Source: Oscillospiraceae bacterium
GTDB lineage: Bacteria; Bacillota; Clostridia; Oscillospirales; Ruminococcaceae
Length of the DNA stretch: 32,942 nucleotides
Assembly (NCBI GenBank): GCA_017533485.1
Contig: JAFXIC010000040.1
Coordinates: 1-32,942, forward strand
Direction: 5' to 3'
Shown here one piece after another: positions 20 through 9,844 of this stretch (position 1 is the first letter of the stretch; each line of letters begins with the position of its first letter). The position numbers were made by a program, and so were the translations under genes. The notes below the pieces were generated by a model. It did no database searches and was not told where the DNA came from. It worked only from the letters and a program-made list of their open reading frames with translations.

Positions 20-1339
20 GCCGGAGCCGATCTCAAAAATTTCGTATTCGGATGGGGAAGATGGCATTACCATAGATGCCTACCGCTGGACAGATGAAAT
101 GACGGTCACAATCCCCGACCAGATTAACGGACGTCCGGTCACGAAAATTGCGCCTGAGGCCTTTCGCTACTGCTATGCAGACGAGGTTTTGCTCCCCGAT
201 ACCATCACGGAAATCGGTGCGGATGCATTCAAGGGCTGTCGGTATCTCAAAAAGATCGTGATCCCAAAAGGTTGTCTGCTGATCGGGCGCGGTGCGTTTC
301 AGGACTGTACACAGCTCGATACGGTGGAATTTCCGGAAACTGCACCCGAAATCGAACCCTCTGCCTTTGACCGTACCGCATATATCACACGGCTGACCGA
401 TACGCTGGTCATCATCGGAAACGGACTCCTTTATGCCTACCACGGGACTGCCGCAGAGGTCACACTCCCTGATACCGTCAAGCAGATCAATGCCAATGCT
501 TTTGCGAATCATACGGAGCTGACCGCGATTACAATTCCCGAATCGGTCACACGGATTGATACGAATGCATTTCTCGGCTGTACCGGCCTTTCTTCGATTA
601 CACTCCTCGGTACGCCCGAACGGATTGCAAAGGATGCTTTTACCGATACCGCGTGGGCGCGTGACAGCAAGGAAGATCTCCTCGTGCTCGGTGCGACAGT
701 CCTCTCTTACCGCGGCAATCAGACAGTGCCGGAAATTCCCGATGGTGTCACGGCAATCGCCAGCGGTGCAGCTCCGATCATCCTGGGGTTACAACCATCA
801 AGCTTCCGGATTCTGTCCGCAAAATTCAGCCCGACGCATTCCGCGGCTGCACCTCGCTTCAGGTTGTGACAATGGGCGATCAGATGGAAGAAATCGGGGA
901 TCGGGCATTCTACGGCTGTACAACACTTTCCTACCTCCGCCTCGGCCATGCGCTGCATACGGTTGGTACAGAAGCCTTTACCGGCTGTAACGCGCTGACA
1001 GAAATCTATCTTCCGGATACGCTGATGACAATCGGCGCTGACGCAGTCGGCTGGAAGCTGGAGCCGGAAACGAATCAGCGTGTGAAAAATGACGCACTGA
1101 CGATGTACTGCAATTCTAAGCCGGCAATGTCCTATGCGGAAACGCTCGGCATCCGCCGGAAAGCACTTCCGGACGCGGAAAATACAAAGCCTGCGCCCGA
1201 AGTAACCGAACAGCCAAAGCATAAATCCGGAAGCTTTCTGTTCTCAGATCCTGCCTATCGCGCGGGACTGATCGGAACGGGGCTATCCTCCCTCCTCGTA
1301 CTTTCCGCCCTCATCTTCCGAAAAAAACGCAAAGGATAA
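1..1339 (+). pseudogene. BspA-like leucine-rich-repeat surface protein, 5'-truncated by the window and frameshifted
   Basis: The reading frame is open from the window edge (codons starting at position 3), so the gene begins upstream. It reads a Thr tract (TTTTTTPEP), then LRR_5/BspA-type repeats of about 23 residues with the recurring pattern LPDTV..I...AF.GC..L. At about 768-780 the LRR pattern stops in this frame and continues perfectly in the next one (SDHPGVTTIKLPDSV), so one base appears missing there. The first frame runs on to a stop at 867-869, and the second carries at least three more repeats to a stop at 1337-1339. The C-terminus is a single hydrophobic helix followed by RKKRKG, a membrane anchor without an LPXTG motif. 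BspA-like proteins are generally surface proteins involved in adhesion. The shift may be a true mutation or a sequencing error. It converges on the operon that also encodes an LRR protein. Confidence 0.85.
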
Positions 1340-1362
1340 GAAATCCCAAAAAAGAATCCGAC

Positions 1363-1420
1363 AAAAAAACCATTCCGACCGTACACATCTCGGTACAATC
1401 GGAATGGTTTTGTCTTTTTG
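1363..1420. terminator. Bidirectional rho-independent terminator between convergent genes
   Basis: The arms AAACCATTCCGA and TCGGAATGGTTT enclose a loop of about 20 nt that contains two GTAC blocks. On the minus strand the stem is followed by seven T residues (1363-1369 read in reverse). On the plus strand it is followed by TTTTGTCTTTTT. It therefore serves both the LRR gene ending at 1339 and the minus-strand operon ending at 1445. Confidence 0.9.
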
Positions 1421-1444
1421 TATGCGCAGTTGGAATCGGGCTGA

Positions 1445-2278
1445 TTAACGGTAAGACGCAATGATTTCTTCTTTCTGCGTACCGACTCTCCCGTTACAGT
1501 CATATTCTTCATAGAACAGGCGCGTCGGGGTATTCATCGAAACCGTATGTCTGCCGCCTGCCTGTGTATAATTGGTGATACGGAAGCTGATACTTTCGCC
1601 GCTCACCGCGTCCAGTATGATAGACATTTCATCGGAAGTCTGTTCCGTACCGATGAGCCGCGGTGCAGCACAAAACTGGAAAATCCGCGGAAGGCTGTAA
1701 GAGGTGGTGTGCATAATCGTCAGCACCGGCTTTCTCTTTTCCGCAATCTCCTCCTGATACGGGGTATCCTGAAATGCGTCGATGGCGATCATATCCGGAA
1801 ATACCGGCATTTCGAGTGTTTTCAGCCGCGCACAGCCGGCAAAAGCACCACTATGGATCGCAGTAATCGTCTTCGGCAGTATCACGTGCTCCAGCGCCGC
1901 ACAGTTATGAAACATATGCGCCGGAATCACCGAAATGCCATTCGGTATCGTAATTTCCCTCAGCAGTCCGCAGCCCTCAAAACATCCGATGCCAAGCGAA
2001 CCGGCAGAACCATCCGGATATCGCATCTCTCCCGGCATCAGAATGTTTTCCAGCGCGTCACAGTCCCGGAATGCATATGCCCCCAGTTCGCAGAGTGTAT
2101 TGGAGAGTGTTGCCTGATGGAGCTTCCGACATTCACGGAATCCGCTCTCTCCGATAATCCGCATGGTATCCGGCATTACAAGGTCTGCGATCTCATGTCC
2201 GCGGAATTCTCCGCGTTCGACCATTTCCTTATTGCGGTACTTCAGCCTGTCACCGCTTTTTCTTGAGAAAATGCCCAT
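1445..2278 (-). CDS. BspA-like leucine-rich-repeat protein without signal peptide
   Basis: This 277-residue protein has LRR_5-type repeats from about residue 30 to 170 (for example LVMPDTMRIIGESGFREC, then ITIPNGISVIPAHMFHNC and VILPKTITAIHSGAF). These are followed by a roughly 100-residue non-repeat C-terminal domain of unknown function. No signal peptide or membrane segment is visible; the N-terminus (MGIFSRKSGDR) is basic and polar, so it is either cytoplasmic or exported by another route. The start is supported by GAGGGG six bases upstream of the ATG. It is the last gene of the dlt-like operon, 38 bp after the lipoprotein gene, and ends just before a strong terminator. The LRR kinship with the convergent neighbour suggests local duplication. 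Its link to envelope acylation is positional only. Confidence 0.85.
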   Translation of the reverse strand: MGIFSRKSGDRLKYRNKEMVERGEFRGHEIADLVMPDTMRIIGESGFRECRKLHQATLSNTLCELGAYAFRDCDALENILMPGEMRYPDGSAGSLGIGCFEGCGLLREITIPNGISVIPAHMFHNCAALEHVILPKTITAIHSGAFAGCARLKTLEMPVFPDMIAIDAFQDTPYQEEIAEKRKPVLTIMHTTSYSLPRIFQFCAAPRLIGTEQTSDEMSIILDAVSGESISFRITNYTQAGGRHTVSMNTPTRLFYEEYDCNGRVGTQKEEIIASYR

Positions 2279-2316
2279 ACTGTTCCCCTCATTTCATCTA
2301 TTCTGATTTTGTATCA

Positions 2317-2910
2317 TCAGCCGACGTGGTAGGTATAAACAATCGAAGATACTGTGCCATCCTCTAAGAAAAATTGTAAATCCACGCCCTCGCCGTTGTA
2401 TACCAGGAATGCATCCGACTCGACATCCGCAGCACCGCAAGCCGCTGTCACATCTGCTACGGATGCGCCAACAGCAACTCCCTCTTTTGTTTTGGCAGCG
2501 GCATCGGTCAGGGTGACTGCATATACACGGTTCACGCCCTGATCCGGATAGGTTTCGACGGTAAATCCGTCATAGGTATAGGTATAGCTTGTGCCCTCGA
2601 ATGCACAGGACGGTGCTTCAAAGGTCTGGGACGGTTCGCCGAGCTGTGCGACGAGCGGATCACATTCCGCGTTGATTACCAGCTCGATGCCGCCTGTGGT
2701 GGTATAGGAAAAGCTTGGTGCGCCGCTCTGATTTTCTGTTGCAGCACCGTTTTGGTCTGAAGCGGCGGTATCGTCCGCAGATGTTGGTGTTGTAGCAACA
2801 GGTGATGTCTGTGCGGTATCAGCGCCGCCCGGGACTTCTTCACAGCCTGCCAGTACGGTCATAGCTGCAAGGGATACGGCAGCGGCGATCATCAGTTTCT
2901 TAAAGTTCAT
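2317..2910 (-). CDS. Putative lipoprotein of unknown function
   Basis: The 197-residue product starts with a clear type II signal peptide, with lipobox LAGC and the lipidated Cys at residue 23. A low-complexity Ala/Thr/Ser/Gln linker follows (about 24-65). The rest is a small beta-rich region with two similar-looking halves. The first contains LGEP...SCAFEG..YTYTYDGFTVETYP. The second contains GVAVGASVADVTAACG, which resembles the Gx(S)xxxVxxxxG pattern of small SmpA/OmlA-type or PepSY-like folds, but I cannot assign a family. A GGAAG ribosome binding site precedes the ATG. It lies 22 bp after the SGNH gene, so it is very likely co-transcribed with the acylation genes and its product would sit on the outer face of the membrane with them. 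Confidence 0.85.
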   Translation of the reverse strand: MNFKKLMIAAAVSLAAMTVLAGCEEVPGGADTAQTSPVATTPTSADDTAASDQNGAATENQSGAPSFSYTTTGGIELVINAECDPLVAQLGEPSQTFEAPSCAFEGTSYTYTYDGFTVETYPDQGVNRVYAVTLTDAAAKTKEGVAVGASVADVTAACGAADVESDAFLVYNGEGVDLQFFLEDGTVSSIVYTYHVG

Positions 2911-2932
2911 GGTGTTATACTTCCTTTCTCAG

Positions 2933-4033
2933 TCATTCTTTCGGGGTTCCGTTTTCTTCTTCTTTTTCAGGTATACCCTTTACATTTCCATATATACGGA
3001 GGTTTTCTTTTTGCTTTTCGAATTCGGTATGGTATCGTACACAGATATCGAGCCAATATGCGGCAAGTTCCGGTTCTTTTCTTCTGTCCTCCAGCGAAAA
3101 TTCTTCGCTGAGATATTCTCCGAGCCAGACCGATAATTTTTCTGCGCCATATACATTCATATGCAGACCGCCGTCATAGGTATCGGTTGTAAAATCAATC
3201 CCGACTTCCGCAATGCGCTTCTCGTCCAGAAAATTGAGGTAGGGAAGGTTATGCGCCGCGGCATATTCGGTAATTTGTGCGTCCCATTCGTCATACCAGT
3301 ACGGATAGAGTGACGGTGCTTTGATCAGCAGGAGTTTGACATCATTCTCCTCACACAGCACCCGCATCTTCTCCAGATATTCCCAGCAGGTTTCTCCGAA
3401 GCTGTAATCGGTCAGCGGCCGTCCTTCCGGTACATTTTCTGCGGCTTTGATATCGGCACGCAGATAATATCCGCTGAAGAAATTGGGCTTCGCACCAAAA
3501 TAGTATCGGAAATCTTCTGCCGTCAGCTCATTCCATCTGGAATGGTAGCGCAGAATCGGGAATACATAGGACAGGAAGCTTTCTTCTTCTGTCATAGACG
3601 CGCGGATACAGTCAGCTTTTGATTTTGACCAGCGCATTCCTTCGATAGACATCCGGTTATAGGCTTCATTCTGTGGGGTATCATATTTCATCGACAGCAC
3701 ATTAAAGACTGCGACATCGGGCTTTTCATACCGCAGGGTATCCTCCAGCAGATAATAGGACTGCCAGATGAGCTGCTGTGCCGAACCACGAATCGCAGAG
3801 GAGATGCCATTTTTCTCCCAGAGTGTCACAGGCGAGAAATTCTCGTAGCATTCACAGTCTCCGACAAATACCACATCATGGTCAAAGCCGCTCTTATAAT
3901 AATCTGCGATGAGGTTTCCCTCGACCACATCCGCCATATATTTCGGCTGTACGAGGCGTTGGGCTGCTGCGGTCAGCACCGCTGCGGAAACTGCCATCGC
4001 AACGCCCGATTGGACAACTTTTTTCTTTGTCAT
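2933..4033 (-). CDS. Membrane-anchored SGNH/DltD-like protein (Cys at the nucleophile position)
   Basis: The 366-residue protein has one N-terminal hydrophobic segment (about 9-28), so its body faces outward. The SGNH-like block I reads VVFVGDCECYENFSP, which puts Cys60 where GDSL enzymes have Ser. The C-terminal catalytic block is DGGLHMNVYG, with Asp287 and His291. A charged tail of about 60 residues follows. In dlt and alginate-type systems the SGNH partner (DltD, AlgJ/AlgX) acts with the MBOAT protein in the last step of acyl transfer to the extracellular polymer; that role is inferred here from position, 65 bp after the MBOAT gene. An AGGAG sequence lies ten bases before the ATG. The Cys may be a functional thiol nucleophile or mark a non-catalytic partner; I cannot tell which. 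Confidence 0.8.
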   Translation of the reverse strand: MTKKKVVQSGVAMAVSAAVLTAAAQRLVQPKYMADVVEGNLIADYYKSGFDHDVVFVGDCECYENFSPVTLWEKNGISSAIRGSAQQLIWQSYYLLEDTLRYEKPDVAVFNVLSMKYDTPQNEAYNRMSIEGMRWSKSKADCIRASMTEEESFLSYVFPILRYHSRWNELTAEDFRYYFGAKPNFFSGYYLRADIKAAENVPEGRPLTDYSFGETCWEYLEKMRVLCEENDVKLLLIKAPSLYPYWYDEWDAQITEYAAAHNLPYLNFLDEKRIAEVGIDFTTDTYDGGLHMNVYGAEKLSVWLGEYLSEEFSLEDRRKEPELAAYWLDICVRYHTEFEKQKENLRIYGNVKGIPEKEEENGTPKE

Positions 4034-4098
4034 GAATCATTGGCTCCTAGAACATGGAGATTCGAAATCGGGAGTCAGCACATTGCTTTGCGCTGTAC

Positions 4099-5691
4099 TC
4101 AGAACTGGTTATAGATAAACTGGCTCGAATCATAGCCGATTCCGTATGCGCCGAAGATCAGCACTGCCAAAAACATTGCCACCGTCAGCACACAGCTCAG
4201 CACCGGCGAACGGTCAAGCACCATTTTCCGCACACTGCCTCTCCGTCCGAGCAGACTCGCCGTCAGCAGTATGCCGGTTCCGATCAGCAGTATCATATAA
4301 TCCCAGCCCGTCAGCGAAAGCTTCATCAGACTTCCGTCCCACAGGACATGGAAATTAAACGATGTAAACATCGAGCTGAACATTTTAAATGTCATCGGTA
4401 CATCCCGATAACAGTCGAACATTCTCAGACAGCCCATCAGCAGGGTTGTGCGGACAGCCTGGAATCCATCGTATGCACGGGTATTGCTCCACTTGTACTT
4501 CGCATGGAATTTCTCATACAGCGGTGTCATACGTTCTGAGATGAGGATAACGACAGCGTTCATCAGACCCCAGACGATAAAGTTCCATGCCGCGCCGTGC
4601 CAGAGACCGGTTAAGAACCAGACTGCGATGGTTGCGACATAGACCGGCACATATTTTCCGATGGTTTTTCCGAGCTTTTCCCTGCTCCATTTCGACAGGT
4701 TCAGCATCGGCTTACAGACGCTCAGCGGATAGAACAGGTAATCCTTGAACCATGTATTGAGGGTGATATGCCATCTCCGCCAGTATTCGGTGATATTCTT
4801 CGAGAAGAACGGCCGCTCAAAGTTTTCTGCGAGCGGAATTCCGAGCACCTGACCGATACCGATGGTGATGTCGATACCGCCGGTGAAGTCCGCATACAGC
4901 TGGAGCATATAGTAGAGGATGCCGAGGAAGGCATAGACGCCGTAATACTGTTCCGGATCGGAGATCAGCACGGTGACAGCCGGCAGAATCCGGTCGGCAA
5001 GAATCATTTTCTTGCAGTAGCCCCAGAGAATCCGCTGGGTTCCGAACAGCACACGCCGCGGCTGGAATCCGTTTCCGGCATACAGCGGCTCCGAGAGTTC
5101 ATCATAACGGCTGATCGGGCCCTGAATGAGCTGCGGGAAGAACGAGACGAAAAGACCGAGTTTTGCGATATTTTTCTCATGCGGATATTTCTCGCGGTAG
5201 ACATCAATCGCATAGCCCATGGTCTGGAACGTATAGAACGAGATTCCCATCGGGAGCAAAAACTGGGGGATCGGGAACGCATTGTCATTCCCGAACAGCC
5301 CTGCCAGCGCATTCATATTCCGCATCGCAAACGCACCGTACTTAATGACAGCGAGGATGCCGAAGTTCAGCACCAGCAGCCCCACCAGCAATCGGAACCG
5401 CCGTTTGTTTGCAGCTTCCTTATATGCCTTTTTCTCCTCACGCTTCATCTCGGATTTATGTGCGGCAAGATATTCTTTTCTCGCACCGGCCATCGCGTCC
5501 AGCTTACGGGTCACAAAATAGGTGCTGACGGTTGTCGCGGCGATATAGAGCAGGTTGCTGAGCCCCGAATATGCATAAAACAGCACACTCGCCGCCAGCA
5601 GCAGCATCCAGCGGAATTTTTTCGGAATCAGAAAATAGGTGACACAAAGCACCACCAGACCGATAATAAACGCGGAATCGGTAAACAGCAT
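4099..5691 (-). CDS. MBOAT-family O-acyltransferase (DltB/AlgI-like)
   Basis: The 530-residue polytopic membrane protein has the family signatures: LIQGPISRYDEL (about 188-199), WRRWHITLNTWFKDYLFYPL with His308, and LTGLWHGAAWN with the conserved catalytic His365. The N-terminal region (residues 1-60) and the C-terminal third are strongly hydrophobic; a charged cytoplasmic-type loop spans about 66-100. DltB/AlgI proteins take acyl groups from a cytoplasmic donor across the membrane to extracellular polymers. The protein ends in FIYNQF. This resembles the C-terminal Tyr-containing motif of DltX, proposed as an acyl relay, and in other MBOAT systems it is carried by the MBOAT protein itself. 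No separate dltX-like small gene is visible. The ATG overlaps the stop of the carrier-protein gene (TGATG), implying translational coupling. Confidence 0.92.
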   Translation of the reverse strand: MLFTDSAFIIGLVVLCVTYFLIPKKFRWMLLLAASVLFYAYSGLSNLLYIAATTVSTYFVTRKLDAMAGARKEYLAAHKSEMKREEKKAYKEAANKRRFRLLVGLLVLNFGILAVIKYGAFAMRNMNALAGLFGNDNAFPIPQFLLPMGISFYTFQTMGYAIDVYREKYPHEKNIAKLGLFVSFFPQLIQGPISRYDELSEPLYAGNGFQPRRVLFGTQRILWGYCKKMILADRILPAVTVLISDPEQYYGVYAFLGILYYMLQLYADFTGGIDITIGIGQVLGIPLAENFERPFFSKNITEYWRRWHITLNTWFKDYLFYPLSVCKPMLNLSKWSREKLGKTIGKYVPVYVATIAVWFLTGLWHGAAWNFIVWGLMNAVVILISERMTPLYEKFHAKYKWSNTRAYDGFQAVRTTLLMGCLRMFDCYRDVPMTFKMFSSMFTSFNFHVLWDGSLMKLSLTGWDYMILLIGTGILLTASLLGRRGSVRKMVLDRSPVLSCVLTVAMFLAVLIFGAYGIGYDSSQFIYNQF

Positions 5692-5933
5692 CAGTCTTCC
5701 TCAAGCGATTCGATGAGGGCAGCCAGTGCTTTCGCGGAATTGAAGTTTTCGGGGATAATCTTATCCGCAGGAATCGCAACATCAAATTCATTGCTGATTT
5801 CGGTGATGACGGTAATGATATCGAACGAATCGAGAATCTTGTCGTCGATCAGTGTTTCACAGGTCTCAAAGTCCACATCCTCATGCAGATCCTTCAAGAT
5901 TCCAACTAAGGTTTCATAGGTTTCGCTCATCAT
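5691..5933 (-). CDS. Acyl (aminoacyl) carrier protein, DltC-like
   Basis: This is an 80-residue acidic protein with the phosphopantetheine attachment block DDKILDSFDII, where Ser36 is the expected prosthetic-group site, followed by the typical helices EISNEFDVAIP and SAKALAALIESLEED. I chose the start at the ATGATG pair (5933 or 5930) because GGAGG lies 5-8 bases upstream. A longer reading frame from 5975 would place this ribosome binding site inside the gene and overlap the ligase. It sits between the adenylating ligase (28 bp gap) and the MBOAT gene (1-base overlap). It is therefore the expected carrier of the activated amino acid, as DltC is for D-Ala. It could not be a fatty-acid ACP by context, since no fatty-acid genes are nearby. 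Confidence 0.9.
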   Translation of the reverse strand: MMSETYETLVGILKDLHEDVDFETCETLIDDKILDSFDIITVITEISNEFDVAIPADKIIPENFNSAKALAALIESLEED

Positions 5934-5961
5934 TGTTTCCTCCATAACATAATTTCTGTAT

Positions 5962-7473
5962 TTATGCGTGATCATAGATCTCCTTTAACGCCTTTCTGTC
6001 AAGCTTTCCGTTTGGTGTATGCGGCATCTCGTCGAGTTTTCGGATGAGATTGGGCTGCATATACCGCGGCAAGCGCTGTTTGAGATAGGCTGCGAGTGCG
6101 GGCTTTTCGACATCTCCCGTATAGAACAGTACGATCTTGCTTTTTGCCTTATCGTAGATACAGCCGACTGCTTCCACACCGTCATACAGACCGCAGTTGA
6201 TTTCGATTTCACCGAGCTCGATGCGGTGACCCATATGTTTAATCTGATAATCCTTACGGGATACGAAAACCAGGTCTCCGTCCGCATTATAATGGGCAAT
6301 ATCACCGGTACGGTAAATCAGCTCCGGGAATCGGGTCTGGAGCGGGTTTTCGGTAAAGACCTCTGCGGTTTTATCGGGCTGGCCGAAATATCCCATCGTC
6401 AGACAGGTTCCGCGGATGCAGATCTCACCCGGCTCACCGAATTTCGCCTCATGGTTTTCCTCGTCCAGCAGCAGAATTCCGGTATTGCGGAAGGGTTTTC
6501 CGATCGGGATTGCTTCCGTTTCCCCGAATTCACGCTCCACATGATAATAACAGCTCATACCGGTTGCTTCGGTCGGGCCATAGAGATTGGTAAACTTCGC
6601 GTCCGGAAGCACCTCTCTCCACATCCGGAACTGTTTGACCGGAAATACCTCGCTGCCGAATGCAATCGTATGGAGTGTTTCGGGGCGGACGGTTTTGAAG
6701 GTACCGGTTGCGGAGATCATGGTCAATGCGGATACGACCCAGCAGATGGTATTGATTTTATGGGTATTGAGATATTCAACGAGTGTAATCGGGAACGAGA
6801 AGCACTGTTTCGGGATCAGGTAGGTTGTCGCACCGAATTTCAGTGTCGGATAGAGCTCTTTCAGACAGGCGTCAAAATAAAGCGGTGTCTGGTTTCCGAA
6901 GACAGTATCCTCTCCGAAGCCGAGTGTTTCGGAAAGATTCTCGATATAGTCGATGACGGATCTGTGACAGGCGAGAATTCCCTTCGGCACACCGGTCGAA
7001 CCGGATGTAAACACAATATAAATCGGGTCAATATCGAGCTGCTTTGCACGGATTCTGCTGAGTGCTTCGGCATCCTCCGCCGTTTCAATCATTTCATCGA
7101 ACAGATAGCTTTTTGCGGTACAGCCAAACTGTGAGAGCAGCGGTTTCGTTGTCGCGTCACAAATGACCGCACGGGGCTTGAGCTGTTCGAGAATCATCTC
7201 AATCCGGAATGCCGGCATCTCCACATCCAGCGGTACATAATAACAGCCGCCGTACAGCACACCGAAGAACGCATTGATTGCGGCAGGGGATTTCTCCATA
7301 AATACCACAACCGGTTCTCCGTACAGCCCATCTTCTGCGAGTGCCGAGCCGATGGCGCGTGCATTCTTCGAAAGCTCGGAAAACGTAAGGCTTGTATGGT
7401 CGTCAGCGAATGCGGTCTTATCCGGCACACGCTGCACGGTTTGTTCTAAGTATTCCAACACATTGGTCTGCAT
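5962..7473 (-). CDS. Amino-acid adenylating ligase, DltA-like (AMP-dependent synthetase family)
   Basis: The 503-residue ANL enzyme has cores A3 (YIVFTSGSTGVPKG, 152-165), A4 with Asp201 (LYFDACLKEL), A5 (NLYGPTEATG), A7 (YRTGD, 387-391), A8 (KHMGHRIELGEIE) and A10 Lys490 (NGKLDRKAL). Its size matches DltA, which activates D-Ala with ATP and loads it on DltC. The conserved Asp201 is the residue that holds the alpha-amino group of amino-acid substrates in A-domains and DltA, so an amino-acid substrate is likely. By hand alignment, the Cys that DltA uses for D-Ala selection corresponds to Ser254 (SALTMISAT), so the substrate may not be D-Ala. It starts 2 bp after the racemase gene, which suggests the racemase supplies its substrate. 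Confidence 0.9.
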   Translation of the reverse strand: MQTNVLEYLEQTVQRVPDKTAFADDHTSLTFSELSKNARAIGSALAEDGLYGEPVVVFMEKSPAAINAFFGVLYGGCYYVPLDVEMPAFRIEMILEQLKPRAVICDATTKPLLSQFGCTAKSYLFDEMIETAEDAEALSRIRAKQLDIDPIYIVFTSGSTGVPKGILACHRSVIDYIENLSETLGFGEDTVFGNQTPLYFDACLKELYPTLKFGATTYLIPKQCFSFPITLVEYLNTHKINTICWVVSALTMISATGTFKTVRPETLHTIAFGSEVFPVKQFRMWREVLPDAKFTNLYGPTEATGMSCYYHVEREFGETEAIPIGKPFRNTGILLLDEENHEAKFGEPGEICIRGTCLTMGYFGQPDKTAEVFTENPLQTRFPELIYRTGDIAHYNADGDLVFVSRKDYQIKHMGHRIELGEIEINCGLYDGVEAVGCIYDKAKSKIVLFYTGDVEKPALAAYLKQRLPRYMQPNLIRKLDEMPHTPNGKLDRKALKEIYDHA

Positions 7474-7475
7474 TT

Positions 7476-8213
7476 TTATTTGTCTCCTTTTGCCGGCCGC
7501 GGCATCCGTTCTTCCCGGACGCGATAGCCGCAGGCTTCGAGTGCGGAGGCGGCGAGCACCTCCATCATATCTAAATATCCGCCGCTAAGGGGCTGCATCT
7601 GTTTTACGACAGAAAGCTCGGTGCATCCGAGCAGGGTGATTTCCGCACCGGATTCCGCGAGATGTGCCCGTACAGCTTCAAAGGTTCCGAGATCAGCGGG
7701 TCTGCCGCATTTGACCTGACGGTAGATGATCTCCATCACCATTGCCTGATGTGCTTCATCGGGAAGGATCGGCCGGATGCCGTTCGATCTGAGCGCATTC
7801 ACAAAAATCCCAGACTGTAAGCTTCCGTCCGTCGCCATAATACCGGCGGCACGCACATCATATTTTTTTAACAGCTCCGCAGTTTTGAGAATCGGATGAA
7901 TGAGCTTGGCTTGAAACGCGTCCGCCAGCGCGTCATAAAATCCATACGCAGTCATACAGGGAATCGCAAGCACCTGTGCGCCGAGGCGTTCGAGTTTTTT
8001 TCCGGAATCTATGAGATCCGGAAGCGGATTCTCGGTACTGTTCCGGAGCAGGAATGCAGTCCGGTCCGGGGTCTGGGGTTTGCTGTAAAGAATCGTTTCG
8101 ATATGGTCCTGATCGGCTGCGGCATCCGTCATTGCAGTCAGCAGTTCTAAAAACTGTGCGGATGCCATCGGCCCTAAGCCGCCGATAATTCCGAGTATTT
8201 TTCTTTGTTCCAT
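7476..8213 (-). CDS. Aspartate/glutamate racemase-family protein
   Basis: The 245-residue protein belongs to the PLP-independent two-cysteine racemase family. The N-terminal block KILGIIGGLGPMAS is typical of aspartate racemases, and the two catalytic Cys lie in IPCMTAY (Cys86) and LLGCTELS (Cys197). Canonical enzymes usually read CNTAH or CNTAS in the first motif, so Met87 and Tyr90 replace residues that help bind the substrate carboxylate, and the substrate may differ. The family interconverts L- and D-Asp or L- and D-Glu in the cytoplasm. It lies between the transglutaminase-like gene (22 bp) and the adenylating ligase (2 bp). A plausible reading is that it makes the D-amino acid that the ligase activates; this is inference from gene order. 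Confidence 0.85.
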   Translation of the reverse strand: MEQRKILGIIGGLGPMASAQFLELLTAMTDAAADQDHIETILYSKPQTPDRTAFLLRNSTENPLPDLIDSGKKLERLGAQVLAIPCMTAYGFYDALADAFQAKLIHPILKTAELLKKYDVRAAGIMATDGSLQSGIFVNALRSNGIRPILPDEAHQAMVMEIIYRQVKCGRPADLGTFEAVRAHLAESGAEITLLGCTELSVVKQMQPLSGGYLDMMEVLAASALEACGYRVREERMPRPAKGDK

Positions 8214-8235
8214 GTCTGTTGTCCCCTTATCCGGT

Positions 8236-9747
8236 TCAGGCGGTCGGGGTTGCGGGGTACAGGCTCTTATCGCGCTTAAAGCAGTTTCCGTTTTTCGCGG
8301 AATAATTATCCATCCATGCGTCGGTTTTCATAAAGAAGTTCGAGATTCCGACACGCGGCGTCGGGTCGGCGTGCCACCACTCGCCGTCAATTTTAATCAT
8401 ATTCCACCAATGTCTGTCGGCATTCGCCGTATTCGCGGGGTGGAATACCATCAGGTTCTCGATTCCCGCACAGGTATAGAGCAGTCTTGCAAAGCCATAG
8501 TAATTCCGGCAGTCGCCATATTTCTGACGGATTGCAAGCGCAGCAGGATACATCCACTGCGTATCCAGATCTTCATATTCATTCTTATTATCCACGAAAT
8601 ACATATGATCCTGCACATAGCGGTAGCACTTATAGGCACGGTCTTTTTCGCTCATATCGGGATCTGCGTCACGGAACAGCTCGTCCGTAATGGCATATCC
8701 CATCAGCATATACATTTCCTGGTCGATTTTCGTGAGGTCGGTATCCTTCGGGAGTACCGTCAGCTTTACAGTCTTTGTACCGGTATTTCCGGAAGAATCG
8801 GTTGCGGAATAGGTGATCTCATATTCACCCGGCGTTTTGATATTCAGACCGTTCGATTCGGTTGCAGTCACCGCAACCTCGCCGTCCACATCATCAATCG
8901 CCTTGGCATTATGCGTATAGGATATCGCAACACCCTCGATGGTTGTCAGGTCCACACAGCCCTCGAATACCGGTGCAACGCCATCGCCCGTCACCTCATA
9001 TGCGGCATCCAGCGTGGTCGCATTTCCGGCGGCGTCAGTGATAATCAGCCGCGCCATTTTCACGCCGGTCACAGTCGTATCCGGTTCATTCTCAAACATC
9101 ACGGCAACCTCGGATGCATCCGTACAGGATTCCACAAAATCGTCCGGTGTGAGCATCTGATTGACGCTGAACGAAAGGGGCTGTCTGAGCTGTACAACGG
9201 GCTTGATCGTATCCTGAACCAGCAGCGTAAAGGGGAATGTTCCGCTTGGAAGCGTCACATTCACGGAAAATGTTCCGGTTTCGGCAAAATCAGACGGCTT
9301 TGCCGCAAGCTGTGCATCTGCATAGGCTTCACCGAGGAGCGCGGAAGCTGAAAAATCCGTACCTTTTTCCCAGCTGAGGACAGCTTCCTTGACGTCGAAC
9401 ACCACATTCTCGGTGCGGACGGTACCATCGGAAAGACGAAGCATCACGGCAACGGTCTGTCTTCCGAGCGTTTCGGCAGGCTCCACCGCATATTTTACTT
9501 CGCGCACGGAATCTGCTTTTTCGGGATTCAGAAGCTCCTGTGCAGTAGGTGTCGGCTCAATACTCCAGAGTATTTTTTCCGCCACAACATAACCTGTGGA
9601 GGCGGCGGCAGTGCCGGAGGAATTTTCATCCTTCCGCGACACAAGCCATGTAAACAGGAGGATTAACATTGTAATGACCAGCAGCCCCGAAAGGCTGTAG
9701 GAAAGTGTAAGCAAAACCTGACTTCTGGATTGTTTTTTCTGATTCAT
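8236..9747 (-). CDS. Membrane-anchored transglutaminase-like protein with Ig-like domains
   Basis: The 503-residue protein has one N-terminal membrane segment (about 11-36) and an extracellular part. That part contains Ig-like modules around 155-255 and 258-333; the latter includes GEYEITYSATDSSGNTGT, the HYR/DUF5011-like pattern. The C-terminal transglutaminase-like domain has the triad Cys413 (KYGDCRNYYGFA), His446 (DRHWWN) and Asp461 (WWHADPTPR). Such domains act as proteases, amidases or protein cross-linkers at the cell surface; the reaction here is unknown. The start at 9747 is chosen because GAGGG lies nine bases upstream. An in-frame GTG at 9807 is too close to the predicted transcription start. 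It is the first gene of the dlt-like operon. Confidence 0.88.
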   Translation of the reverse strand: MNQKKQSRSQVLLTLSYSLSGLLVITMLILLFTWLVSRKDENSSGTAAASTGYVVAEKILWSIEPTPTAQELLNPEKADSVREVKYAVEPAETLGRQTVAVMLRLSDGTVRTENVVFDVKEAVLSWEKGTDFSASALLGEAYADAQLAAKPSDFAETGTFSVNVTLPSGTFPFTLLVQDTIKPVVQLRQPLSFSVNQMLTPDDFVESCTDASEVAVMFENEPDTTVTGVKMARLIITDAAGNATTLDAAYEVTGDGVAPVFEGCVDLTTIEGVAISYTHNAKAIDDVDGEVAVTATESNGLNIKTPGEYEITYSATDSSGNTGTKTVKLTVLPKDTDLTKIDQEMYMLMGYAITDELFRDADPDMSEKDRAYKCYRYVQDHMYFVDNKNEYEDLDTQWMYPAALAIRQKYGDCRNYYGFARLLYTCAGIENLMVFHPANTANADRHWWNMIKIDGEWWHADPTPRVGISNFFMKTDAWMDNYSAKNGNCFKRDKSLYPATPTA

Positions 9748-9815
9748 AAATACATACCCTCTATCGAAAATCTTTTTGGGATATGGATGCGATAAGCATT
9801 CATGCACTCCTTTAT

Positions 9816-9844
9816 ATTATATCGCTTTTGGCAGGCTCTGTCAA
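9816..9844 (-). promoter_or_regulatory. Sigma-A promoter of the dlt-like operon
   Basis: Read on the minus strand, TTGACA (9844-9839) and TATAAT (9821-9816) are separated by exactly 17 bases, a full consensus match. The predicted transcript starts near 9809 and gives a leader of about 60 nt before the ATG at 9747. The rest of 9748-9924 shows no other clear element. Confidence 0.9.

What the first reader, a model, noticed from the sequence alone, without database searches (positions are those of the whole stretch)
1445..9844. Variant dlt-like operon with a racemase, a transglutaminase-like protein and an LRR protein
One consensus promoter drives eight closely spaced genes (gaps from a 1-base overlap to 65 bp). 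The ligase, carrier, MBOAT and SGNH genes match the DltA-C-B-D logic, in the order A-C-B-D. Known dlt operons attach D-Ala to teichoic acids. Here a two-Cys racemase lies 2 bp upstream of the ligase. A membrane-anchored transglutaminase-like protein, a lipoprotein and a BspA-like LRR protein are in the same unit. Inference: the cassette decorates an envelope polymer or surface protein with an amino acid supplied by the racemase, possibly D-Asp or D-Glu instead of D-Ala. That would be a distinct envelope-modification system; I cannot say whether it has been described.
Basis: partly seen in the sequence, partly recalled or inferred. Interest (0 to 1): 0.75.

Follow-up and report, generated by a model that had tools for sequence, protein, structure and literature searches.

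The report
Dlt-like operon for acidic amino acids
Gut and rumen bacteria carry a relative of the machinery that decorates bacterial surfaces with D-alanine; this version has its own amino-acid racemase, looks built to attach an acidic amino acid instead, and uses a cysteine where the known machinery uses a serine.

Summary
In detail: eight close genes follow a perfect promoter consensus and end at a strong hairpin. The core TG-RAC-LIG-ACP-MBOAT-SGNH-LIPO is a conserved unit, found in 34 further loci of Lachnospiraceae, Oscillospiraceae and kin with mostly different flanks. Its ligases form one clade (support 100) apart from DltA. A racemase lies in 24 of these 34 loci and in 0 of 53 loci with other ligases. 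The ligase pocket is nearly invariant and unlike DltA: Lys where DltA has Val/Leu/Cys, Gly where DltA has its D-Ala-selecting Cys. The racemase keeps both cysteines and the Arg/Lys pair of aspartate racemase. Both predict an acidic amino acid, probably D-Asp or D-Glu. The MBOAT ends in an acyl-shuttle motif, FIYNQF; the SGNH nucleophile is Cys in 32 of 32 clade and hybrid rows, Ser in 22 of 22 others. The LRR gene is lineage-specific and lacks an export signal. The transglutaminase/lipoprotein pair is real but not unique: it also accompanies O-acetylation and D-Ala dlt loci. Acceptor, stereochemistry and exact acid are untested.

The parts
9816..9844 (-). promoter TTGACA-17-TATAAT
   Evidence: 12 of 12 consensus match
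8236..9747 (-). TG: membrane-anchored transglutaminase-like protein with a surface Ig-like domain; Cys-His-Asp kept
   Evidence: PF01841 36 bits, PF16403 30 bits; triad residues aligned; N-terminal hydrophobic stretch
7476..8213 (-). RAC: Asp/Glu-family amino-acid racemase; Cys86, Cys197, Arg51, Lys168
   Evidence: PF01177 96 bits; TIGR00035 178 bits, above cut-off, and CuyB 183 against cut-off 190; nearest solved relative 1jfl aspartate racemase; these residues kept in all 25 distinct cassette racemases aligned
5962..7473 (-). LIG: stand-alone amino-acid adenylation ligase, pocket DAKCAGLGMK (Asp201, Lys205, Gly273, Lys490)
   Evidence: TIGR01733 above cut-off; two DltA models 263 and 270 bits against cut-offs 560 and 476; pocket
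5691..5933 (-). ACP: carrier protein with LDSFDII phosphopantetheine site
   Evidence: PF00550 21.0 bits against 20.8; Ser site kept in relatives
4099..5691 (-). MBOAT: membrane acyltransferase; C-terminal FIYNQF acyl-shuttle motif at 4102-4119
   Evidence: PF03062, TIGR04091 142 bits against cut-off 375, motif
2933..4033 (-). SGNH: membrane-anchored SGNH-fold transferase with Cys60 (codon 3854-3856) at the nucleophile place, Asp287, His291
2317..2910 (-). LIPO: lipoprotein, lipobox LAGC, modelled tandem alpha-beta fold, invariant Cys102
   Evidence: Cys in 24 of 24 rows; model pLDDT 80; weak fold matches to YjgB/DUF4309 and BLIP-like proteins, none under E 1e-3
1445..2278 (-). LRR: BspA-type leucine-rich repeat protein, lineage-specific last gene, no export signal
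   Evidence: PF13306 96 bits; homologue at this place only in L037, L038, L039; hydropathy
1366..1411 (.). hairpin with A/T runs, probably a two-way terminator
   Evidence: fold of window 1346-1440

Best explanation
The operon is a Dlt-like envelope aminoacylation system for an acidic amino acid, most likely D-Asp (or D-Glu). RAC makes the D-form from the L-form. LIG adenylates it and loads it on the phosphopantetheine arm of ACP. MBOAT moves the aminoacyl group through the membrane onto the Tyr of its own C-terminal FIYNQF tail. The tail hands it to Cys60 of the SGNH protein as a thioester, and SGNH places it on an envelope polymer or surface molecule. TG and LIPO are an extracytoplasmic accessory pair that also serves other MBOAT-SGNH systems; LIPO probably works on the SGNH transferase itself. 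Shown by sequence: the gene set, its conservation, the pocket and catalytic residues, the tail motif, the Cys. Inferred: substrate, stereochemistry, direction of the reaction, ester or amide product, acceptor, role of TG and LIPO.
For: Conserved block with mostly unlike flanks in 34 loci. Ligase clade at support 100, apart from 11 DltA-type ligases. Pocket: 9 of 10 positions invariant in 35 ligases, while 102 of 502 columns overall are invariant. Position 239 is Lys against Val/Leu/Cys in 11 DltA-type ligases; position 301 is Gly against Cys in all 11, and that Cys (Cys269) is named as a determinant of D-Ala selectivity (PMC4176424, passages). Racemase in 24 of 34 loci (21 directly upstream of the ligase, 3 at other places of the cassette) against 0 of 53. 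Arg and Lys at the places of aspartate-racemase Arg48/Lys164 in all 25 distinct cassette racemases. Of ten clade genomes without a seen racemase in the locus, 8 have one elsewhere at E <= 1e-30, one a weak fragment, one none. A racemase-first search of 394 order genomes gave five loci with a window-type ligase next door among 29 non-own loci read; one of the five (L123) has the same racemase as L044. Asparagine synthase inside the operon in L047, with a close relative in L051. Acyl-shuttle motif F-x-Y-x-x-F at the end of 31 of 35 MBOATs; two of the other four are cut by contig ends; its function is from PMC12148441 (abstract and passages). A LIPO domain is fused to the C-terminus of an AlgX-type SGNH protein in L199.
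Against: No biochemistry. That Lys at 239 marks acidic side chains rests on recalled NRPS codes. Lys239 is also present in 39 of 53 other ligases, many beside decarboxylase-like enzymes, so it does not mark the racemase type alone. Three of the three further cassette racemases scanned (L038, L041, L049) pass the cut-off of NCBI's cysteate racemase CuyB; the window's lies just below. Ten of 34 loci show no racemase. One locus of the clade (L057) lacks a window-type MBOAT and SGNH. No acceptor gene was recognised.
Confidence: 0.6

Rival explanations
1. It is an ordinary D-alanylation (dlt) operon with chance neighbours.
For: Order of ligase, carrier, MBOAT and SGNH genes as in dlt; LIG and MBOAT match DltA and DltB models below cut-off.
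Against: DltA, DltB and DltC models score far below cut-off, no DltD match; the pocket differs from all 11 DltA-type ligases at 8 of 10 positions, the D-Ala-selecting Cys being Gly; racemase and TG recur over 34 loci; a real dlt operon with DltD exists in a family relative, L194.
Confidence: 0.05
2. Same machine, other acid: the racemase acts on cysteate, or supplies an L-form from a D-form, and a sulfonate amino acid or an L-acidic amino acid is attached.
For: L038, L041 and L049 racemases pass the CuyB cut-off; an Arg/Lys pair and Lys239 would suit a sulfonate too.
Against: TIGR00035 scores higher than CuyB in two of these three, and the nearest solved relatives are named aspartate racemases; the asparagine synthase in L047 and its relative in L051 point to a carboxylate.
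Confidence: 0.2
3. The amino acid is not put on a glycopolymer: the acceptor is a protein or lipid (for example LIPO with its invariant Cys), or the ACP-bound amino acid enters a small secreted molecule.
For: LIPO has an invariant Cys and TG a Cys-His-Asp triad; no flank gene recurs except among close relatives (the flanks were not annotated by family).
Against: LIPO was not found in six loci with room for it: L045, L049, L050, L053, L058 and the atypical L057; TG and LIPO also sit at O-acetylation and D-Ala dlt loci; MBOAT-SGNH pairs that are understood modify polymers (PMC12148441).
Confidence: 0.15

Closest known systems
dltABCD(X) D-alanylation of teichoic acids
   Same: Stand-alone adenylation ligase, carrier protein, MBOAT, membrane-anchored SGNH-fold protein, in one operon
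   Different: Different ligase clade and pocket, own racemase, shuttle motif on the MBOAT instead of DltX, SGNH outside PF04914 with Cys at the nucleophile place
PatA-PatB peptidoglycan O-acetylation
   Same: MBOAT with fused C-terminal F-x-Y-x-x-F tail plus a separate SGNH transferase
   Different: PatA uses acetyl-CoA and no carrier protein (PMC12148441); here ligase and carrier are present, and the nucleophile place holds Cys
Aspartate racemase (1jfl, 5b19) and cysteate racemase CuyB
   Same: Two Cys, Arg and Lys at the places recalled to bind the second acid group
   Different: Cys-Met/Ile/Val-Thr in most cassette racemases where 1jfl has Cys-Asn-Thr; tied to an ACP-ligase operon
Ligase/PLP fold-III enzyme/ACP/MBOAT/SGNH cassettes (L025, L098, L107 and others)
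   Same: Same core, Lys239 ligases, fused shuttle-like tail in many
   Different: LysA-like enzyme in place of the racemase, Ser at the nucleophile place, no TG found; L094, L100 and L103 are hybrids with TG

Membership tests
dlt operon (D-alanylation) | DltA equivalog with Cys269 and D-Ala pocket | tested here: not met
   263 bits against cut-off 559.85; Gly273 at the Cys place
dlt operon (D-alanylation) | DltB equivalog | tested here: not met
   TIGR04091 142 bits against cut-off 375
dlt operon (D-alanylation) | DltC equivalog | tested here: not met
   dltC models 29 and 18 bits against 68 and 52; it is a carrier protein by PF00550, barely over its cut-off
dlt operon (D-alanylation) | DltD, PF04914 | tested here: not met
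   no match at E <= 1, none in the genome; the SGNH fold is shared
dlt operon (D-alanylation) | D-Ala esterified to teichoic acid | not testable with these tools
   needs chemistry
MBOAT-SGNH acyl-shuttle systems | C-terminal F-x-Y-x-x-F on the MBOAT or a microprotein | tested here: met
   FIYNQF at the very end of the window MBOAT; 31 of 35 tails
MBOAT-SGNH acyl-shuttle systems | catalytic Ser in the SGNH partner | tested here: not met
   Cys in 32 of 32 clade and hybrid rows, Ser in 22 of 22 others
Asp/Glu racemase family (TIGR00035) | model cut-off and two Cys | tested here: met
   178 bits against 93; both Cys; activity not tested
Cysteate racemase CuyB (NF052483) | model cut-off | tested here: inconclusive
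   window 182.7 against 190; three relatives 195-204
Transglutaminase-like superfamily PF01841 | cut-off and Cys-His-Asp | tested here: met
   36 bits against 23, residues; activity not tested

The most novel reading that the evidence does not exclude
A separate branch of envelope aminoacylation in gut Clostridia: a racemase-fed ligase puts an acidic D-amino acid on a carrier, an MBOAT with a built-in Tyr shuttle carries it out, and a cysteine-SGNH transferase holds it as a thioester, which could favour amide formation with amine acceptors. The amino-acid supply module is exchangeable (racemase type or decarboxylase type) against one export module, and a transglutaminase-lipoprotein pair works with this and with other MBOAT-SGNH systems.
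Probability: 0.35. Interest if true: 0.78.

Novelty: new variant of a known kind. Interest (0 to 1): 0.62.

Why it matters
Dlt D-alanylation adds positive charge to the surface; a system that adds an acidic amino acid would do the reverse or make a new zwitterion, in gut and rumen bacteria that meet host defences. A Cys in place of the SGNH Ser changes the chemistry of a transferase class whose Ser mechanism has only recently been worked out. A carrier-protein donor together with a fused shuttle tail departs from the statement in PMC12148441 (passage) that MBOAT/SGNH pathways other than Dlt lack a similar carrier protein. Substrate and Cys role can be tested with few purified proteins.

Tried and rejected
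Ordinary dlt with chance neighbours: rejected (pocket, cut-offs, conservation). LRR gene as a core part: rejected, found at this place only in the window and three close loci. TG and LIPO as unique to this cassette: rejected. Twelve flanks of LIPO relatives were fetched and read: TG, LIPO, AlgI-type MBOAT and AlgX-type gene in L190, L195, L196, L198 (the same set stands in the own genome, L033); TG, MBOAT and an AlgX-type protein with a fused LIPO domain in L199; LIPO, AlgX and MBOAT with only a weak, distant TG match in L200; LIPO, two TG genes and a dlt operon with DltD in L194; two TG genes and a DltA-type ligase in L192; DltA-type ligase and MBOAT but no TG in L191; LIPO and TG without MBOAT in L189; no such neighbour in L193 and L197. 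Link of the Cys to the racemase alone: rejected, the hybrids L094 and L100 have Cys with the other supply type. A special likeness of SGNH to DltD: not seen, many SGNH hydrolases score as high or higher. LIPO fold search: nothing under E 1e-3. Repeated recruitment of racemases: not shown; my first count of label changes set apart five rows that are cassettes themselves, and with these merged the starred branches force two changes, not three. RNA families and tRNAs in the window: none. Literature: searches (open-licence PMC library only) listed no paper whose title or abstract start tells of this cassette, of a Cys-SGNH transferase or of TG/lipoprotein genes at MBOAT loci; I read passages in four papers only, of PMC9487903 12 of 18 places, with no Cys nucleophile among them. 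Many subscription papers are not held there. NRPS specificity codes and the PhAspR Arg48/Lys164 roles are recalled.
Full report
What is there. The window is a whole contig (G000:C24, 32,942 bases) of a 2.12-Mb, 88% complete genome. On the - strand eight genes run from 9747 to 1445 behind a 12-of-12 TTGACA-17-TATAAT site and end at a strong hairpin. Families: transglutaminase-like with Ig domain (TG), Asp/Glu racemase (RAC), adenylation ligase (LIG), carrier (ACP), MBOAT, an SGNH-type protein, a lipoprotein without a family (LIPO), a BspA-type LRR protein. LIG, ACP and MBOAT match the DltA, DltC and DltB models but far below cut-off; SGNH has no DltD match. No PF04914 gene and no TIGR01734 match at 1e-100 was found in the genome. 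Four other MBOAT genes lie on other contigs; the one on C76 stands beside an AlgX/DHHW-type gene.

Is it a unit. A scan of one genome per species with the ligase gave 80 loci, the best 80 of 591 confirmed in a capped list. I divided these, with seven family relatives (L025-L031), by ligase pocket and identity. Thirty-four loci plus the window form one group (55-87% identity to the window ligase; L037-L069 and L071) and one clade at support 100; the other 53 ligases are 37-46% identical. L024 is the same contig as L039 and was dropped from counts. In the 34 loci, by tblastn at 1e-4: TG in 32, RAC in 24, LIPO in 23; blastp adds LIPO in L064. The two without TG are L069, which begins inside the ligase, and L057, an atypical locus near a contig end without a window-type MBOAT or SGNH. 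Of the 24 racemases 21 lie directly upstream of the ligase; in L046 it precedes TG, in L061 and L068 it follows LIPO. The flanks share few genes apart from close relatives, so the conserved block is the likely block of function. RAC is in 24 of 34 against 0 of 53 (Fisher 8e-14; related sequences and unequal contig lengths, so the number overstates). Starting instead from the racemase, 83 of 394 order genomes have a hit at 1e-30; of 29 non-own loci kept and read, five have a ligase 59-67% identical to the window's next to it, one of them (L123) with a racemase identical to that of L044. Of ten group genomes without a seen racemase in the locus (L069 is cut there), eight have one elsewhere at 1e-30 or better, one a weak fragment, one none; L038 and L049, given as positive controls, were found. 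In the racemase tree 20 of 25 cassette racemases and those five fall together (support 85), while L046, L061, L057, L062 and L068 fall elsewhere; starred branches force at least two changes of the label and the tree needs five. L046 and L061 sit in a supported set with racemases found elsewhere in the genomes of L058, L059 and L067. Several branches are long and many forks weak, so repeated recruitment is possible, not shown.

Which amino acid. In GrsA numbering the window ligase reads D235 A236 K239 C278 A299 G301 L322 G330 M331 K517. Nine of these ten are invariant in all 35 ligases, while 102 of 502 columns are invariant overall. In 11 DltA-type ligases found in the same order and family, position 239 is Val, Leu or Cys, 301 is always Cys, 322 Thr, 330 Val; they differ from the window at 8 of the 10. 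None of 98 order genomes passed the DltA cut-off, 9 had a match at 1e-100, so these are DltA-type by likeness, not certified DltA. The Cys is Cys269 of Bacillus cereus DltA, close to C-alpha of D-Ala and a determinant of selectivity; Asp197 holds the amino group and Lys492 the carboxylate (PMC4176424, passages); the window keeps Asp201 and Lys490. From recalled NRPS codes, Lys or Arg at 239 goes with Glu, D-Glu or methyl-Asp. The racemase independently points to a second acid group: nearest solved relatives are named aspartate racemases, and the residues aligned with Arg48 and Lys164 of 1jfl (roles recalled) are Arg and Lys in all 25 distinct cassette racemases aligned, as are both Cys. L047 has an asparagine synthase inside the operon (430 bits against 267) and L051 a relative of it at the same place, which suits Asp. 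Against a firm choice: three of three further cassette racemases scanned pass NCBI's cysteate-racemase cut-off, and Lys239 occurs in 39 of the 53 other ligases; 26 of those 53 lie by a fold-III PLP enzyme, of which the four scanned are LysA-like below cut-off. S. aureus DltA had measurable activity with D-Ala, D-Ser, D-Thr and D-Pro and not with the other D-amino acids tried (PMC12071552, passages).

Modules. L094, L100 and L103 have a ligase of the PLP type (inside that clade) together with TG; L094 and L100 also have MBOAT, SGNH(Cys) and LIPO of the window type (L103 ends inside its MBOAT). The MBOATs of L094 and L100 lie inside the window group at support 100. So one export module has been joined to two kinds of amino-acid supply, and the Cys goes with the export module, not with the racemase. 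TG and LIPO go further: LIPO relatives (18 of 119 family genomes at 1e-6, some matching only over the signal region) sit beside TG, AlgI-type MBOAT and AlgX-type genes in the own genome and in L190, L195, L196 and L198, and beside two TG genes and a dlt operon with a 300-bit DltD in L194. In L199 a LIPO domain is fused to the C-terminus of the AlgX-type protein (residues 523-660, Cys kept), which suggests that LIPO acts at the SGNH transferase. Other flanks are partial or lack these neighbours (see Tried and rejected). LIPO has a lipobox and a second invariant Cys in 24 of 24 rows and a modelled tandem alpha-beta fold. I propose that TG and LIPO help MBOAT-SGNH systems in general; how is open.

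Rarity and hosts. Within the window's family only the window and one congener (G108, 81%) of 119 genomes hold a ligase of the group; the seven other hits at 1e-60 are 38-45% identical. By record titles the 34 loci come from Lachnospiraceae (13), Oscillospiraceae (6), Clostridiaceae (2) and less exactly placed Clostridia, many from gut and rumen, among them Pseudobutyrivibrio ruminis DSM 9787 (L049) and Cuneatibacter sp. NSJ-177 (L043), whose records are not labelled as MAGs. One record is labelled Gastranaerophilales (L052) and may be misbinned.

Verdict. A conserved Dlt-like system with its own racemase, an acid-type pocket, a fused shuttle tail and a Cys at the nucleophile place: a new variant of a known kind, of good interest because each inferred step can be tested with a few proteins.

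Noticed in passing
window 99-1339, + strand: A second BspA-type LRR protein with a C-terminal membrane stretch is split over two frames (ORFs 99-869 and 866-1339): frameshift or assembly error.
   Followed up: no
L033 (own genome C76:1-12000), L190, L195, L196, L198: TG (with choline-binding repeats in L033 and L198) plus a LIPO relative plus AlgI-type MBOAT and AlgX-type gene: the TG-lipoprotein pair at probable O-acetylation loci.
   Followed up: partly
L199:4467-6470: LIPO-like domain fused to the C-terminus of an AlgX-type SGNH protein, beside MBOAT and TG genes.
   Followed up: partly
L194:194-6369: LIPO, two transglutaminase-like genes and a dlt operon with a true DltD in one run: the pair also at a D-Ala type locus.
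   Followed up: partly
L025, L027, L087, L092, L098, L104, L107, L108, L115, L116: Ligase / LysA-like PLP enzyme / ACP / MBOAT / SGNH(Ser) cassettes in gut Firmicutes and Collinsella; could make a decarboxylated amino acid on the carrier (inference).
   Followed up: partly
L047:3312-5150, L051:3902-5743: Asparagine synthase gene (L047; relative in L051) inside the cassette, with the gene order changed to ACP-MBOAT-SGNH-AsnB-TG-RAC-LIG-LIPO.
   Followed up: partly
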